Virus record (IMG/VR): IMGVR_UViG_3300046028_002034
Span: 1 to 20,260 of that record
Origin: a virus
Strand: one strand, 5' to 3'
Length of the DNA: 20,260 bases
This document shows positions 1 to 11,742 of this stretch, piece after piece. A model generated the notes under the pieces. It made no database searches, was not told the DNA's origin, and saw only the letters and a program-made list of their open reading frames with translations. Positions within the stretch are counted from its first letter, which is position 1. Each line of letters begins with the position of its first letter. The position numbers and the translations under genes were made by a program.

Positions 1-471
1 GGCGCGGTCGTAATAGCCGCGGCTAGCGTACCAATCGCGCCGGTTGCCCCACCCGATCACGGCATAGCCCGCCGGAGTCTCCGGCAGACAATCGCGCCAG
101 TAGGCCCACAACGCGGAGGCCAGCACCGCGGCGGCCGCGCGGCGGTACTCGGTCGGCCAATATTGGCCGGTCGTGTAGTCCAGGCGCGCGCCATCCCATG
201 ACAGGCGACCGGAGAAAGCCGATTGGAAGGCATCCCGCAGCATGGCCGCCGTGATGGACGGTCGAAGCTCTACGGCGCGGAGCAAGGCGCGTGCGTCCCG
301 CAAGTCTCGGCCGATAGATCGAACCTCGGCCGCGTAGGATGCCCGGTCGTAATCGCGGGCGTCCAAGCCTGGACGCTGGCGGATGAAAGCGTCTAGCGCC
401 GTCAGGATCGCGTCTCGTTCGGTCGCGTCATTGGTGGCGGTATCGGTGGGGGCGTGTGCGAGTGTTTCCAT
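1..471 (-). CDS. Hypothetical phage/plasmid-type protein, 3' end cut by window edge
   Basis: An open frame of 157 codons runs leftward from an ATG at 471 and is still open at position 1, so the C-terminus lies outside the window. The start is supported by CACTAGAGG eight bases upstream, the same signal used by the next two leftward genes. The N-terminal 20 residues are Thr/Ala/Asp-rich and probably disordered. A helical stretch follows (AILTALDAFIRQRPGLDARD, then RDLRDARALLRAVELR), and then an aromatic, Arg-rich part (TGQYWPTEYRRAAAAVLASALWAYW) ending in NRRDWYASRGYYDRA. From memory this pattern resembles uncharacterised proteins of phages and plasmids; I know of no assigned function. It is the last visible gene of a leftward cluster divergent from the structural genes, where regulatory or replication-associated genes often lie. 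Confidence 0.75.
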   Translation of the reverse strand, partial: METLAHAPTDTATNDATERDAILTALDAFIRQRPGLDARDYDRASYAAEVRSIGRDLRDARALLRAVELRPSITAAMLRDAFQSAFSGRLSWDGARLDYTTGQYWPTEYRRAAAAVLASALWAYWRDCLPETPAGYAVIGWGNRRDWYASRGYYDRA

Positions 472-2292: not shown

Positions 2293-3799
2293 CGCCGAGG
2301 AAGAAGAAACCCTGATGGCGCGGCTGTGGTCGCCTGCCGTCAAGGACGACCCGGAGGCGTTTGTGCTGTTCGTGTTCCCGTGGGGGCAGAAGGGCACCCC
2401 GTTGGAGCACTTCAAGGGGCCGCGACGGTGGCAACGGAAGGTGCTGCGCGACATCGCGGCGCACATCGCCCGCAACAAGGAGTTGACCAACTTCGAAGTG
2501 CTGCGCATGGCGACGGCTTCGGGGCGTGGTATCGGCAAGTCGGCGCTCGTGTCCTGGCTTATTTTGTGGATGCTGACGACGCGGATAGGCTCCACAACCA
2601 TCGTTTCGGCCAACAGTGAGAGCCAGTTGCGCTCCATCACCTGGGCAGAAGTCACAAAATGGCTTGCGCTGATGATGAACAGCCATTGGTTTGAGGTGAG
2701 TGCGACCCGTGTGATGCCGGCGAAGTGGTTGGCGGAGCTGGTTGAGCGCGATCTCAAGAAGGGTACGCGCTACTGGTCGGTCGAAGGCCGGTTGTGGAGC
2801 GAGGAAAACCCGGATGCCTACGCCGGCGTTCACAATTTCGACGGCGTTTTGGTCATTTTCGACGAGGCAAGCGGTATTCCCGACCCGATTTGGTCGGTGA
2901 CGGCCGGATTTTTCACGGAAAACACGCCAAATCGCTTCTGGATGGCGTTTTCCAACCCACGACGGCCGGAGGGCTACTTCTATGAGTGCTTCAACGCGAA
3001 AAGGGACTTCTGGACAACGCAAAACATCGACGCGCGCACCGTCGAAGACACCGATAAAGCGGTCTACGAGCAAATCATCGCGGAATACGGCGTTGACAGC
3101 CCCCAAGCCCGAGTGGAAGTCTACGGAGAGTTCCCCTCTGACGGCGACGACCAGTTCATCAGCCCCCGGTTGGTGGACGAGGCTATGGCGCGGCCTCGTT
3201 TCAAGGATGAAAACGCTCCGCGAGTGATTGGAGTAGATCCCGCGCGCGGCGGGGCGGATGCGACGGTCATCGCCGTGCGCCAAGGGCGCGATTTGATTGC
3301 CCTGCACCGCTATCGGGGCGAGGATACGATGGCGACGGTGGGGCGGGTGATTGACGCCATTGAGCAGTACCGCCCGGCGCTGACGGTGATTGACGAGGGC
3401 GGCTTGGGCTACGGCATCCTTGACAGGCTCAAGGAGCAGCGTTACAAGGTACGAGGCGTGAACTTCGGTTGGAAGTCGCGTAATCCGGCTGCCTGGCAGA
3501 ACAAGCGTTCCGAAATGTGGGCGGACATGCGAGAATGGCTGAAAGGTGCAAGTGTGCCCGATGATCGGGTGCTGAAAGCCGATTTTGTCGGCCCGCACCA
3601 GAAGTTCAACTCCGCTGGTGCAATCCTTTTGGAGAGCAAGAAAGACATGAAAGCCCGTGGTTTGGCCTCGCCTGATGCGGCTGACGCCATCGCCGTGACG
3701 TTTGCATACCCTGTTGCCAGCCGCACGGAGCGCCCGTCTGAGCGGCGCGTCACGCTGCGTGAGGGCGGTGGTATGTCCGGCAGTTGGATGAGCGCCTGA
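2273..3799 (+). CDS. terL: Terminase large subunit (packaging ATPase and nuclease), 508 aa
   Basis: This is the DNA-packaging motor at the portal: an N-terminal ATPase drives DNA into the procapsid and a C-terminal RNase H-like nuclease cuts the concatemer. The Walker A loop is GRGIGKSA at residues 84-91. Walker B is VLVIFDEA (192-199) with D197 and E198. FSNPRR (226-231) fits the coupling motif. Nuclease carboxylates are seen as D322 in VIGVDPARGG, D374 in TVIDEGG, and D468/D471 in SPDAADAIA. All key residues are present, so it should be active. The start is GTG at 2273, with GGAGG six bases upstream inside the small subunit gene; the two frames overlap by 20 bases, which suggests coupled translation. 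The stop is followed two bases later by the portal GTG. Confidence 0.95.
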   Translation: MQTPIYSAEEEETLMARLWSPAVKDDPEAFVLFVFPWGQKGTPLEHFKGPRRWQRKVLRDIAAHIARNKELTNFEVLRMATASGRGIGKSALVSWLILWMLTTRIGSTTIVSANSESQLRSITWAEVTKWLALMMNSHWFEVSATRVMPAKWLAELVERDLKKGTRYWSVEGRLWSEENPDAYAGVHNFDGVLVIFDEASGIPDPIWSVTAGFFTENTPNRFWMAFSNPRRPEGYFYECFNAKRDFWTTQNIDARTVEDTDKAVYEQIIAEYGVDSPQARVEVYGEFPSDGDDQFISPRLVDEAMARPRFKDENAPRVIGVDPARGGADATVIAVRQGRDLIALHRYRGEDTMATVGRVIDAIEQYRPALTVIDEGGLGYGILDRLKEQRYKVRGVNFGWKSRNPAAWQNKRSEMWADMREWLKGASVPDDRVLKADFVGPHQKFNSAGAILLESKKDMKARGLASPDAADAIAVTFAYPVASRTERPSERRVTLREGGGMSGSWMSA

Positions 3800-3801
3800 C
3801 C

Positions 3802-5976
3802 GTGGCGACTGATCCGGTAGGGATGCGGGCGGCGGCGCGGTCGAGTGCCCCCGCGCCCAAGGGCAAGAAGCGCAACACGCAGGACATCTTGGCGACGGCG
3901 CGCACGCGCATGGTGTCGGCCATCGCCGCCTATGCGGACAGCCGCGAAGATGAGCTGGACGACTTGCGGTTCATGGCCGGTAGCCCGGACAACCAGTGGC
4001 AGTGGCCGCAGGATGTCTTGGCGACACGCGGTTCGGTGCAGGGGCAGACGGTCAACGCGCGTCCGTGTTTGACCATCAACAAGCTCCCGCAGCACGTCCG
4101 GCAGGTCACGAACGAACAGCGGCAGAACCGCCCGGCCGGCAAGGTCATCCCGGTGGATGACAAGGCCGACATGGAGGTGGCCGAGATTTTCGACGGCATG
4201 GTGCGGCATATCGAGTACATCTCGGATGCCGATGTGGCCTACGACACCGCCTGCGACAATCAGGTGACGTTTGGCGAGGGGTACGTTCGCATCCTGACGA
4301 AGTACTGCGACGAGGACACCTTCGACCAAGACGTGTTTATCGGACGCATCCGCAACTCGTTCAGCGTGTACATGGACCCGACCATCCAAGACCCTACGGG
4401 CATGGATGCGGAATGGTGCTTCATCACCGAGGACATGACGCGCGACGAGTTTGAGCGCACATTCCCCGATGCTGAGCCGATATCGTCCATCATGCAGCGC
4501 GGGGTCGGTGACTCCGCGATGACGCAGTGGATCAGCCGCGAAACGGTGCGCATCGCGGAGTATTTCTACAAGGAATACACCCGCGCCACGCTCAACCTGT
4601 ACCCCAGCAACATCACGGCGTTTGCCGGCTCGCAAGAGGCCGCGCAGGCCGAAATGATGGGTCTGCCGGTCATCCGCACGCGCGAAGTGGACCGCTGCCA
4701 GGTCAAGTGGATCAAGACCAACGGCTACGAGATTCTTGAGGAACAGGACTGGCCGGGCGATTGGATTCCGGTCGTTCGCGCCATCGGCAACGAGTTTGAA
4801 GTCGATGGGCGCATGTACGTCTCCGGCCTTGTGCGCAACGCCAAGGACGCGCAGCGGATGTACAACTACTGGGTGAGCCAGGAAGCGGAAATGCTCGCCT
4901 TGGCGCCCAAGGCGCCGTTCATCGGCTACGGTGGCCAGTTTGAGGGCTACGAGCAGCAGTGGAAAACAGCCAACACCAACAACTGGCCGTACCTTGAGGT
5001 CAACCCGGATGTGACGGACGGGCAGGGCGGCGTGTTGCCGCTCCCCGCGCGCGCGCAGCCGCCGATGGCTTCCAGCGGTCTGTTGCAGGCCAAGTTGGGC
5101 GCGGCGGATGACATCAAGAGCGCCACCGGGCAGTATGATTCAAGCCTCGGAGCGCAGTCCAACGAGCGTTCGGGCAAAGCAATTCTGGCGCGTGAGAAGC
5201 AGGGCGACACCGGCACGTTCCACTACATCGACAACATCGGTAGAACCGTCCGAGCTGTCACGCGCCAGATCATTGACCTGATACCGAAAATCTACGACAC
5301 GCAGCGTATCGCGCGCATCGTGGGGCTTGATGGCGAGGTCAAGACCGTCCGCATCGACCCGACGCAGCCGGAGCCGGTTCGCAAGATCACGGACGAACAG
5401 GGCGTGGTGCTTGAGAAGATCTACAACCCGTCTGTCGGCAAGTACGATGTCCGCGTGACCACCGGCCCGTCGTACATGACGAAGCGCCAGGAAGCGATGG
5501 ACGCCATGAGCCAGATTCTCACGGCCAACCCGGACTTGTGGCCGGTGGCGGGCGACCTGTTCGTGAAGAACATGGACTGGCCGGGCGCGCAGGAAATTGC
5601 CAAGCGCCTTGGCAAGATGATCGACCCGAAGCTGCTGACCGACGAGGAAAACCCGGCGTTGCAGGCTGCCAACATGCAGATGCAGGCGATGGCGCAAGAG
5701 ATGGACATGATGCACGCGATGCTCCAAAAGGTGCAGACGTCCATGGAAGCGCGTGAAGTGGACATCAAGGCGTATGAGGCCGAAACCAAGCGGATTGCCG
5801 CGGTGCAGGAACAGATGACGCCTGAGCAGATCCAAGACATCGTGCTTGGCACGCTCAACGGCATGATGACTTCGGGCGACTTGGCGCCGGAAATGCCCGA
5901 AATGCCGGAAGCCCCGCCTGACATGGGTATGGGGATGCCGCCTGACGGGATGATGCCGCCAGAGGGTATGGCATGA
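3802..5976 (+). CDS. Portal protein, P22 gp1-like, 724 aa
   Basis: The portal is the dodecameric ring at one capsid vertex through which DNA enters and leaves. Length (724 aa) and position between large terminase and the head genes match P22 gp1 (725 aa). The central part has the expected portal features (NKLPQHVRQVTNEQRQNRPA, then YVRILTKY, and later TGQYDSSLGAQSNERSGKAI before ILAREKQGD). The region after about residue 600 is helical and Met/Gln-rich, as for the P22 helical barrel, and it ends in a Met/Pro tail (MGMGMPPDGMMPPEGMA). The frame is open back to a TTG at 3784. The GTG at 3802 was chosen because it follows the terminase stop by two bases and gives the family length, although its ribosome binding site is weak. 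Confidence 0.9.
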   Translation: MATDPVGMRAAARSSAPAPKGKKRNTQDILATARTRMVSAIAAYADSREDELDDLRFMAGSPDNQWQWPQDVLATRGSVQGQTVNARPCLTINKLPQHVRQVTNEQRQNRPAGKVIPVDDKADMEVAEIFDGMVRHIEYISDADVAYDTACDNQVTFGEGYVRILTKYCDEDTFDQDVFIGRIRNSFSVYMDPTIQDPTGMDAEWCFITEDMTRDEFERTFPDAEPISSIMQRGVGDSAMTQWISRETVRIAEYFYKEYTRATLNLYPSNITAFAGSQEAAQAEMMGLPVIRTREVDRCQVKWIKTNGYEILEEQDWPGDWIPVVRAIGNEFEVDGRMYVSGLVRNAKDAQRMYNYWVSQEAEMLALAPKAPFIGYGGQFEGYEQQWKTANTNNWPYLEVNPDVTDGQGGVLPLPARAQPPMASSGLLQAKLGAADDIKSATGQYDSSLGAQSNERSGKAILAREKQGDTGTFHYIDNIGRTVRAVTRQIIDLIPKIYDTQRIARIVGLDGEVKTVRIDPTQPEPVRKITDEQGVVLEKIYNPSVGKYDVRVTTGPSYMTKRQEAMDAMSQILTANPDLWPVAGDLFVKNMDWPGAQEIAKRLGKMIDPKLLTDEENPALQAANMQMQAMAQEMDMMHAMLQKVQTSMEAREVDIKAYEAETKRIAAVQEQMTPEQIQDIVLGTLNGMMTSGDLAPEMPEMPEAPPDMGMGMPPDGMMPPEGMA

Positions 5977-9177: not shown

Positions 9178-9669
9178 ATGCCTAACATGGCCAACGATAC
9201 CGCCGCTTTTGACCCGGTGGACTACTACACCAAGCAGCTTCCGCTGGACTTGGCGCGCTTGACCGAACTGCGCGACGAGTTGCGCAAGCGCCAGGGCGCA
9301 ATCACCGCCGTTGATGATGCGCTGAAAGACCGTGAGGCGGCGGCGGCGGCGCTTGCCGAAGCCAAGGAGCAGGCGGCCAAATTGGTCGCTGACGCCAAGG
9401 CAGCGGATGCCAAGAGCAAGGCAAAGGCCGCTGAACTGGACGCGCGCGCGAAGGAGCTTGACCGTACCGAGGCAGATGCCCGTGCGGGGCTTGTTTCACG
9501 TGAAACCGCGGCTGCCGGCCGAGAGCGCGATGTCGCTGCCCGAGAGTCCGCCGCCGCCGCCAAGGAACAGGCGCTTGCCAACGCTGCTGCCAAGCTGGAC
9601 GCCGAGCGCATCGCCTTTAACGCCAAGGTCGCGTCCTTCCAGGACATGGCCGCGCGGATGAAGGCTTGA
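9178..9669 (+). CDS. Ala/Lys/Glu-rich coiled-coil protein, 163 aa
   Basis: After a short globular start (DPVDYYTKQLPLDLARLTEL) nearly the whole protein is a charged helix rich in Ala, Lys, Glu and Asp (AEAKEQAAKLVADAKAADAK; then LDARAKELDRTEADARAG), ending in VASFQDMAARMK. Such coiled-coil proteins upstream of the scaffold are common in this type of phage as I recall; a role in head assembly next to the scaffold is a reasonable guess but unproven. A second ATG lies nine bases downstream. The codons for VSRET form an exact GTTTCACGTGAAAC palindrome (see the parS-like site). The stop codon overlaps the -35 box of the promoter for the scaffold gene. Confidence 0.7.
   Translation: MPNMANDTAAFDPVDYYTKQLPLDLARLTELRDELRKRQGAITAVDDALKDREAAAAALAEAKEQAAKLVADAKAADAKSKAKAAELDARAKELDRTEADARAGLVSRETAAAGRERDVAARESAAAAKEQALANAAAKLDAERIAFNAKVASFQDMAARMKA
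9492..9507. promoter_or_regulatory. parS-like site (ParB-binding sequence)
   Basis: TGTTTCACGTGAAACC matches 15 of 16 bases of the well-known bacterial parS consensus (TGTTnCACGTGAAACA). Its inner 14 bases, GTTTCACGTGAAAC, form a perfect palindrome. parS is bound by the chromosomal partition protein ParB (Spo0J), a CTP-dependent clamp that spreads along neighbouring DNA. It lies inside the coiled-coil gene about 160 bases before the scaffold promoter. I noticed no second copy and no parA/parB gene in the window. The match is seen directly; ParB binding is inferred. Confidence 0.6.
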
Positions 9670-9693
9670 CACTTTTTCGCCACAGCGTATGCT
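9666..9693 (+). promoter_or_regulatory. Sigma70-type promoter for scaffold and coat genes
   Basis: TTGACA (9666-9671, perfect -35) and TATGCT (9688-9693, four of six for -10) are 16 bases apart. They sit in the only larger gap of this block, with transcription expected to begin near 9700, about 40 bases before the scaffold ATG at 9740. Nothing comparable was noticed elsewhere in the structural cluster, so it may boost scaffold and coat expression over the genes upstream. Confidence 0.65.
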
Positions 9694-9739
9694 GTAACCC
9701 GTACTGGCCCGGTTGACCAGGGATTCGCAAGGATCACGC

Positions 9740-10516
9740 ATGTCCGAAAATGAAGCTGTAGCGGGGGAAGTTCCCGCGCTGGAACCGGAAGTCACGGCGA
9801 CCCCGGAACCCGAAGTTGCTGCCCCCGAGGCGGCAAAGCCGGAAGAAACGCCTACCTCCAAGACCTTTACCCAAGAGGAACTGGACGCGGCGGTAGGTAA
9901 GAGGCTTGCGCGTGAACGGCGCAAGTGGGAACGCGAACAGGCGGTGAAGGCACCCGAGGCTCCCCGAGCCGACGCGCCGTTGCCGCCCAAGGACGAGGAT
10001 CCCGAGGCGTATGCGGAGGCTCTGGCCGAACGCAAAGCCGCGGAACTTCTCGCCCAACGCGAGGCTGAACGCGAGCGCCTTGACCGGCTTTCGGCGTATC
10101 AGGAGCGTGAGGAATCGGCGCGGGACAAGTACGACGACTTTGAACGAGTCGCCTACAACCCCTCGCTGCGAATCACGACCGTGATGGCCGAGACGATTCA
10201 AGCGTCCGATGTCGGCCCCGATGTGGCCTACTACCTTGGGTCTAACCCCCAGGAAGCAGACCGTATCTCCCGCTTGGCCCCGTTTCTGCAAGCCAAAGAG
10301 ATTGGGCGAATCGAAGCGAAGTTGGCTGACAACCCCGCTCCGGTTCGCAAGACGACAAGTGCGCCACCCCCCATCAAGCCGGTAACGGCTAGGGCGGCAG
10401 GTGCGCCGGCGAGAGACACGACCGACCCTCGTTCCATCAAGGACATGAGTACATCGGAGTGGATTGAAGCCGAGCGCCTGCGGCAGCAGAAGATGTGGGA
10501 AGCGCGTAACCGCTAA
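9740..10516 (+). CDS. Head scaffolding protein, 258 aa
   Basis: The scaffold guides coat assembly into procapsids and leaves before DNA is packaged. The gene lies directly before the coat gene, as in P22 (gp8 then gp5). The N-terminal 45 residues are Glu/Pro/Ala-rich and acidic (EVTATPEPEVAAPEAAKPEE), followed by FTQEELDAAVGKRLARERRK, a motif typical of phage scaffolds, then a long charged helix (LAERKAAELLAQREAERERL). The C-terminus, DPRSIKDMSTSEWIEAERLR, then QQKMWEARNR, is a basic helical tail of the kind that binds coat protein. The ATG at 9740 has AAGGA six bases upstream; an in-frame TTG at 9713 is less likely. A promoter lies just upstream. Confidence 0.85.
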   Translation: MSENEAVAGEVPALEPEVTATPEPEVAAPEAAKPEETPTSKTFTQEELDAAVGKRLARERRKWEREQAVKAPEAPRADAPLPPKDEDPEAYAEALAERKAAELLAQREAERERLDRLSAYQEREESARDKYDDFERVAYNPSLRITTVMAETIQASDVGPDVAYYLGSNPQEADRISRLAPFLQAKEIGRIEAKLADNPAPVRKTTSAPPPIKPVTARAAGAPARDTTDPRSIKDMSTSEWIEAERLRQQKMWEARNR

Positions 10517-10536: not shown

Positions 10537-11742
10537 GTGGCCAATTCACTTCTTACAATCGACATGATCACCCGCAAGGCTCTTGAGATCCTTGAGAACA
10601 ACCTGGTGATCACCCGCAACGTCAACCGCCAGTACGACGACTCGTTTGCCGTCGAAGGCGCCAAGATCGGCTCGACCCTGCGCATCCGTCTCCCGGATCG
10701 TGCGCTGGTGACGGACGGTGCTGCCCTCCAGGTGCAGTCCGACAACGAGCAGTTCACCTCGCTCACCGTGTCCAGCCAGAAGCACGTCGGCGTGAACTTC
10801 ACGTCCGCCGAACTTGCGCTGTCGTTGGACGACTTCGCGGAGCGCGTCCTCAAGCCGCGTATCTCGCAGCTTGCGTCGAGCGTGGACGCCGATGTGGCGA
10901 ACGCCTACAACGGCATCTACCAGTCGGTCGGCACCCCCGGCACTACGCCGGCGACCTCGCTGGTTCTGCTCCAGGCCAACCAGAAGCTCAACGAGGCCGC
11001 TGCGCCGATGTCGCCGCGCTACCTCACGGTCAACCCGGCTGCCAACGCCGGACTGGTCGAGGGCATGAAGGGTCTGTTCAACCCCGTCAGCACCGTGAGC
11101 AAGCAGTTCAAGGGCGGCATGATGGGCGAGGGCATCCTCGGCTTTGACGAGATTGGCATGTCGCAGTCCATCAAGCAGTTCACCACCGGCTCCCGCTCGG
11201 GCAGCATCACGGTGAACGGCACGGTGTCGGCTCAGGGCGCGACCACCATTTCGTTCAACGGTACGACCGCTCAGACGCTTGCGGTGGGCGATGTGTTTAC
11301 CATCGCCAACGTGTTTGCGGTCAACCCGCAGACCCGCGAATCGACCGGTTCGCTCCAGCAGTTCGTCGTGACCGAAGCCAACACGGCTGCGGCCAGCGCG
11401 TTCACGAACGTGAAGATCAGCCCGGCGATCTACACCTCGTCGCACGCTCTCGCCACCGTGGACTCGTTCCCGCAGAACAGCGCCGTCGTGACCTTCGTTG
11501 GTGCCGCCAGCACCAGCTACCCGCAGAACCTCGCGTACCACAAGGACGCGATTTCGTTCGCCACCGCCGACCTCCTGCTCCCGCAGGGCGTTGACATGGC
11601 CTCGCGGCAGGTTCACAACGGCATCAGCCTGCGTATCGTGCGCCAGTACGACATCAACAACGACCGGATGCCTTGCCGCATCGACGTGCTGTACGGTTAC
11701 GGAGTCATCCGTCCGCAGCTCGCCGCTCGCGTCTGGGGCTAA
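10537..11742 (+). CDS. Major capsid (coat) protein, P22 gp5-like, 401 aa
   Basis: This forms the icosahedral shell. It starts with GTG, with CGGAG six bases upstream, 20 bases after the scaffold stop. The N-terminus (MANSLLTIDMITRKALEILE, then NNLVITRNVNRQYD) and the strand-rich segment GAKIGSTLRIRLPDRA are typical of P22-type coats with the HK97 fold. Residues about 217-330 (from GSRSGSITVNGTV through VGDVFTIANVFAVNPQT to FVGAASTSYPQNLAYH) correspond to the insertion domain, the extra beta-barrel of this lineage that aids folding. The C-terminal part (GVDMASRQVHNGISLRIVRQ, then YDINNDRMPCRIDVLYG) returns to the core fold. It is about 30 residues shorter than P22 coat (430). Confidence 0.9.
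   Translation: MANSLLTIDMITRKALEILENNLVITRNVNRQYDDSFAVEGAKIGSTLRIRLPDRALVTDGAALQVQSDNEQFTSLTVSSQKHVGVNFTSAELALSLDDFAERVLKPRISQLASSVDADVANAYNGIYQSVGTPGTTPATSLVLLQANQKLNEAAAPMSPRYLTVNPAANAGLVEGMKGLFNPVSTVSKQFKGGMMGEGILGFDEIGMSQSIKQFTTGSRSGSITVNGTVSAQGATTISFNGTTAQTLAVGDVFTIANVFAVNPQTRESTGSLQQFVVTEANTAAASAFTNVKISPAIYTSSHALATVDSFPQNSAVVTFVGAASTSYPQNLAYHKDAISFATADLLLPQGVDMASRQVHNGISLRIVRQYDINNDRMPCRIDVLYGYGVIRPQLAARVWG

What the first reader, a model, noticed from the sequence alone, without database searches (positions are those of the whole stretch)
9492..9507. A near-perfect bacterial parS site inside a phage head-region gene
TGTTTCACGTGAAACC differs from the parS consensus by one edge base and its 14-base core is a perfect palindrome. 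The codons used (GTT TCA CGT GAA ACC) include TCA, unusual in this GC-rich gene, so the palindrome is not simply forced by the protein. No parA/parB is visible nearby. Hypotheses: the phage recruits host ParB to hold its genome near the host origin, to segregate an extrachromosomal prophage, to influence transcription from the scaffold promoter 160 bases away, or to act as a ParB decoy. As far as I recall, a lone chromosomal-type parS in a late structural gene is not a described phage feature.
Basis: partly seen in the sequence, partly recalled or inferred. Interest (0 to 1): 0.8.

Follow-up and report, generated by a model that had tools for sequence, protein, structure and literature searches.

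The report
Lone bacterial parS site in phage
A virus of freshwater bacteria carries, inside a gene next to its capsid genes, one copy of the DNA address tag that bacteria use to pull their chromosomes apart; the tag is real and of a form known to be bound by a bacterial ParB, and such lone tags turn out to be far commoner in phages than chance, but in this virus it is young and lost in close cousins, so its use here is likely but not shown.

Summary
Confirmed: TGTTTCACGTGAAACC sits at 9492-9507, codons VSRET of a 163-aa ORFan just upstream of the scaffold gene of a P22-like phage. It is the reverse complement of the T1G form of parS that Burkholderia ParB still binds (PMC5450999). In this phage family it is not ancient: five haplotypes 93-97% alike keep it, a sister group at 89% has two changes, another at 85% has four and keeps RET with other codons, and more distant relatives lack it. 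Conservation among the five is no better than for a quarter of the gene. No ParB is seen.

The wider search changes the odds. The same 16-mer lies in at least 120 viral contigs against 7 and 3 for two shuffled palindromes; the full consensus lies in 286 of 50,697 phage records against 0 and 0. Carriers are genuine phages, mostly without ParA or ParB, and the site often lies inside terminase, portal or head-protease genes. Phage phi29 is a precedent for using host ParB (Spo0J). Edge and flank statistics make a chance origin here perhaps 35-45% likely. Best reading: a recently acquired host-ParB loading site, function inferred, not shown.

The parts
9492..9507 (+). parS-like 16-mer TGTTTCACGTGAAACC (one edge mismatch to the chromosomal consensus)
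   Evidence: edge tolerance PMC5450999, PMC4368675
9493..9506 (.). perfect 14-base palindromic core GTTTCACGTGAAAC
9178..9669 (+). 163-aa Ala/Lys/Glu-rich ORFan that contains the site (codons V106-T110); relatives found only in viral contigs of this phage group
9666..9693 (+). sigma-70-like promoter TTGACA-N16-TATGCT before the scaffold gene; not kept in all relatives that carry the site
   Evidence: read
9740..10516 (+). head scaffolding protein
   Evidence: PHROG 8865, E 2.5e-26
10537..11742 (+). P22-like major capsid protein
   Evidence: PHROG 283, E 1e-78; 78% to MW202483, 71% to phage DSL-LC05
2273..3799 (+). terminase large subunit (context)
   Evidence: PHROG 2, E 4e-45
3784..5976 (+). 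P22-like portal protein (context)
   Evidence: PHROG 156, E 1.6e-127

Best explanation
The palindrome is a chromosomal-type parS, acquired within this phage lineage, that loads the host's ParB clamp onto the phage genome. Shown: the sequence is there; it is a form that ParB of a Betaproteobacterium binds; parS is strongly over-represented in phage genomes that lack ParA and ParB, also inside late genes. Inferred: that this phage's host has a canonical ParB, that ParB binds here in the cell, and that binding was selected. The most plausible use is that ParB-CTP clamps let non-replicating or carrier-state phage DNA share the host's oriC segregation machinery (ParA, SMC), so that a slow or stalled infection is passed to daughter cells, as phi29 DNA is carried into spores by Spo0J. 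The site is under weak or recent selection, because sister lineages lack it.
For: Exact form: TGTTTCACGTGAAACC is the reverse complement of parSc1 T1G, which is bound in EMSA, SPR and in vivo by Burkholderia cenocepacia ParBc1 (PMC5450999); P. aeruginosa parS1 and parS4 carry the same ..AACC edge and are high-affinity sites (PMC4368675). Of 50 viral contigs with the 16-mer none has a ParA (AAA_31) match and one has ParB_N over the cut-off. Genes that hold the T..C site in GC-rich contigs include three terminases, a head maturation protease, a virion structural protein, primase and DNA polymerase, and none matches a typical host housekeeping family in Pfam. In an unbiased 14-mer sample the T..C edge is about 8 times commoner per type than edges with no consensus base (14 sites over 2 types, 8 over 9); inside open frames of GC-rich contigs about 5 times. 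All six near haplotypes seen keep the 16-mer. Precedent: phi29 and Spo0J (PMC9437464).
Against: Not kept at 85-89% identity; L013 group TGTTTTACGGGAGACA, L016 group TGCTTCACGTGAAACT; absent from twelve 37-55% homologues and from 79 of 80 capsid-relative loci, the 80th being a near-clade contig already counted, and from the two nearest complete genomes at up to 3 mismatches. Among the five near haplotypes 24% of all 16-base windows of the gene are equally invariant. Only one site, with one edge mismatch and without the A..T flanks that many phage parS sites show, and within a gene, whereas consensus phage sites favour intergenic DNA. The host is unknown; no ParB binding was measured.
Confidence: 0.5

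Rival explanations
1. Chance: codons for VSRET in a fast-changing ORFan happened to spell parS in one recent lineage. Host ParB may still bind it, but without consequence that selection sees.
For: Clade-restricted and absent or broken in sister groups; no conservation above background; single site, edge mismatch, no A..T flank; the finding was picked from a large scan; 14-mer cores with no consensus edge also occur by the hundred in viral contigs.
Against: In the unbiased sample the T..C form is about 8 times, or 5 times in comparable genes, commoner than the chance-like edge types, which alone would leave about 20% for chance; the flank bases raise that to perhaps 35-45%. Small counts (14 and 8) make this rough.
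Confidence: 0.4
2. Silencing or titration: ParB spreading from the site lowers late transcription (scaffold, capsid) early in infection, or the site soaks up host ParB to disturb host segregation.
For: ParB can silence promoters next to parS, as for parS3 and parS4 of P. aeruginosa (PMC5521831); a good promoter lies 159 bases downstream in the window.
Against: L502 keeps the site with about 2.7 kb more DNA before the scaffold gene, and L002 has another gene instead of the promoter; one site per phage copy competes with several in the host, so titration needs high copy number.
Confidence: 0.07
3. Not for ParB: a target of a phage or host regulator with a similar palindrome, or a transcript hairpin.
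For: Palindromes are general protein targets; Microbacterium phages carry parS within a gene annotated as a DNA-binding protein.
Against: Preference for exactly the parS consensus including edges T..A (94 of 148 sites) and rarity or absence of control palindromes; terminator reading fails: T-runs follow few sites and none follows this one.
Confidence: 0.03

Closest known systems
phage phi29 and host Spo0J (ParB) of Bacillus subtilis (Meijer et al. 2005, read here only as cited in PMC9437464)
   Same: Virulent phage whose DNA is handled by host ParB; the relative B103 has an exact parS in late morphogenesis gene 15 and no ParB_N.
   Different: Firmicute, spore entrapment, Spo0A control; here a P22-like phage, probably of Proteobacteria, one site with an edge mismatch, and no experiment.
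Bacterial chromosomal parS (ParABS), e.g. parSc1 of Burkholderia cenocepacia and parS1/parS4 of P. aeruginosa
   Same: Same 14-base core (Burkholderia) and a tolerated edge base (both).
   Different: No parB found in cis, one site, in a phage late region.
SGI1 genomic island hijacking the parABS of IncC plasmids (PMC10954446, seen by title and abstract only)
   Same: A mobile element uses another replicon's partition system to stabilise itself.
   Different: Plasmid-type system; here the host chromosome's parS type.
Plasmid-prophages with own par genes (mycobacterial phages, PMC7157519, title and abstract; Lacachita ParB, PMC10286716)
   Same: Partition of extrachromosomal phage DNA.
   Different: They encode Par proteins; this phage group shows no ParB in the DNA at hand.

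Membership tests
Chromosomal-type parS site | 16-base palindrome TGTTNCACGTGAAACA with tolerated edge changes | tested here: met
   consensus PMC7022226, edge tolerance PMC5450999
Chromosomal-type parS site | bound by a ParB | not testable with these tools
   the same sequence is bound by ParBc1 in the literature (PMC5450999); binding by this phage's host ParB not known
ParABS partition locus | parA and parB genes in cis | tested here: not met
   no ParB_N in window and ten relatives' contigs up to 30.6 kb, nor in two complete relatives; contigs are fragments; of the near clade only one contig (L003's) was also searched for ParA, with no match
Phage that exploits host ParB (phi29 kind) | lone parS, no own parB | tested here: met
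Phage that exploits host ParB (phi29 kind) | site kept by selection in the lineage | tested here: inconclusive
   kept in six near haplotypes, not above background; broken or absent at 85-89% identity
Phage that exploits host ParB (phi29 kind) | fate of phage DNA depends on host ParB | not testable with these tools
   needs infection experiments
Intrinsic terminator (considered) | hairpin followed by T-run | tested here: not met
   site is followed by GCGG; few class members have T-runs

The most novel reading that the evidence does not exclude
Lone host-type parS sites are a widespread, repeatedly gained feature of phages (tailed phages, microviruses, inoviruses) that lets them borrow the host's ParB/SMC segregation machinery without own par genes, and this P22-like phage is one recent gain within a late gene.
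Probability: 0.45. Interest if true: 0.8.

Novelty: new variant of a known kind. Interest (0 to 1): 0.5.

Why it matters
If lone parS sites in phages are selected, many virulent phages use the host chromosome's centromere system, which would explain how stalled or carrier-state infections are inherited and would make ParB a general phage-host interface. It is directly testable with one silent mutant and a parB deletion host in isolated phages that carry the site (for example Bacillus phage B103 or Arthrobacter phages).

Tried and rejected
Own parB: none found. Host contamination of viral contigs as cause of the enrichment: about half of the site-bearing genes tested match phage families and none a host family, and the same holds in isolate genomes, though some short Listeria records (OR84....) look like host fragments. 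Terminator hairpins: rejected. Promoter-proximal role: weakened by L002 and L502. A longer contig hit, L489, proved unrelated. Host assignment through capsid relatives: scattered proteobacterial bins, one in a 769-kb contig of Rhizorhabdus histidinilytica, none close enough to name the host. Literature: no paper in the held library was seen to describe a survey of lone parS sites in phages; Livny 2007 and Meijer 2005 themselves are not held.

Full report
What is there. The window is a 20,260-base IMG/VR contig, 61.6% GC, of a P22-like phage: terminase, portal, scaffold, P22-type coat protein, a head-closure protein (PHROG 578) and a tailspike-like protein. Nearest annotated genomes are an uncultured podovirus from Manatee Spring and phage DSL-LC05 from Dishui Lake, 71-78% in the coat protein. 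The palindrome TGTTTCACGTGAAACC lies at 9492-9507 in frame in a 163-aa ORFan between a small gene and the scaffold gene. The ORFan has no relative in 50,697 phage records but 20 in viral contigs.

Is it ParB's target. The consensus of chromosomal parS is TGTTNCACGTGAAACA, with minor variants, also in Burkholderia, Caulobacter and Vibrio chromosome 1 (PMC7022226). The window's form read on the other strand is GGTTTCACGTGAAACA, that is parSc1 with T1G on one arm, which keeps binding to ParBc1 in SPR, EMSA and in vivo (PMC5450999). P. aeruginosa parS1 and parS4 share the final C and bind only slightly less well than the perfect sites (PMC4368675). So binding is likely if the host has a ParB of the usual kind. 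The host is not known; capsid relatives fall in several, mostly proteobacterial, bins.

Is it kept. Among relatives of the gene: five haplotypes at 93-97% identity have the exact 16-mer and L502 adds a sixth. L016-L018 at 89% have TGCTTCACGTGAAACT; L013-L015 at 85% have TGTTTTACGGGAGACA; L019-L021 at 69% have no trace, nor do twelve homologues at 37-55%. By the Burkholderia data T3C on one arm weakens the site and internal changes at 6, 10 and 13 should abolish it (PMC5450999; the step from symmetric to one-arm changes is my inference). Within the near group 24% of 16-base windows are equally invariant, so there is no sign of selection above background, and little power. The two nearest complete genomes have no site within three mismatches. 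I describe only the states in living sequences; the machine does not offer ancestral sequences, and I did not try another way.

Is such a site more than chance in phages. In phage records the consensus 16-mer, searched as an N-padded query, occurs in 286 records; two control palindromes in none; the T..C form in 9. The 286 include Pecentumvirus of Listeria, Microbacterium, Arthrobacter, Gordonia and Lactobacillus phages, phi29-like phages, Vibrio phage phi 3, roseophages, gokushoviruses, Spiroplasma phage 4 and inoviruses, one with six sites in 5.9 kb. Many of these records are near-copies of each other, so the number of independent lineages is far below 286. No enterobacterial phage is among the listed rows and none of their genera can exceed six records, although they are numerous in such collections (own knowledge) and Enterobacteriaceae lack chromosomal par genes (PMC7022226). 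This is suggestive only; I could not list all 286.

What the carriers are. Of 50 contigs with the T..C 16-mer none has a ParA (AAA_31) match, three have any ParB_N match and one is over the cut-off. Of eleven annotated carriers one has ParB_N over the cut-off. Of twenty site-overlapping open frames from GC-rich contigs (one contig supplies two) about half match phage families, among them three terminases, a head protease and a virion structural protein; the rest match nothing, and none a host family. Arthrobacter phages Ranunculus and BruhMoment hold three parS or near-parS sites each within 5 kb of portal and capsid protease genes. So lone parS inside head-region genes recurs.

How likely is chance here. 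In the first 120 contigs with the 14-mer core 94 sites have both consensus edges, 14 have T..C or G..A, 8 have neither. Taking the last as chance, T..C is about eight times over chance per type, and about five times within long open frames of GC-rich contigs. The window's flanks, T before and G after, are less common in the T..C class. I put chance at 35-45%, with wide error because the counts are small. Consensus sites avoid genes (37% in long frames against 77% of random positions), which also speaks for function of the class but less for a site within a gene.

Mechanism. If bound, ParB-CTP clamps would load and slide on phage DNA (established for ParB, PMC12704722). The likeliest benefit is sharing the host's segregation and condensation machinery during slow or carrier infection; phi29 is the precedent (PMC9437464). 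A promoter effect is unlikely as the distance to the scaffold promoter is not kept. No integrase was found in the window or near relatives, but a 75% capsid relative lies in a large Rhizorhabdus contig, so lifestyle is open.

Verdict.

Noticed in passing
L367 (bajarodino virus 6, PQ006149.1) 635, 662, 1414, 2857, 4096, 5628: An inovirus of 5.9 kb with six exact parS sites, five between genes, some starting a base or two after a stop codon; bajarodino virus 3 also reports 12 places. No ParB_N.
   Followed up: partly
L364 2501, 3616, 4711; L365 749, 1910, 2501: Arthrobacter phages Ranunculus and BruhMoment carry three parS or near-parS sites each inside portal and capsid maturation protease genes; a weak ParB_N match lies upstream.
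   Followed up: partly
window 9670-9740 against L002, L016, L502: Gene cassettes are inserted between the site-bearing gene and the scaffold gene in some relatives (about 2.7 kb in L502): a variable spot within the head module.
   Followed up: partly
window 154-169: Longest perfect palindrome of the window, CGGCCAATATTGGCCG, 16 bases, near the contig end.
   Followed up: no
L350 (Rhizorhabdus histidinilytica, NZ_FUYM01000001.1): A coat-protein relative (75%) in a 769-kb bacterial contig, hinting that part of this P22-like group is temperate.
   Followed up: no
phage records OR846756-OR849501 (Listeria phage LM 4-11-1, LM 4-14-1): Short unannotated fragments with parS that may be host chromosome pieces deposited as phage; they inflate the Listeria count of 87.
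   Followed up: no
L385 408, 939, 1379, 2002: Viral contig with four GTTTCACGTGAAAC sites lacking both consensus edge bases within 1.6 kb, perhaps a phage centromere.
   Followed up: no
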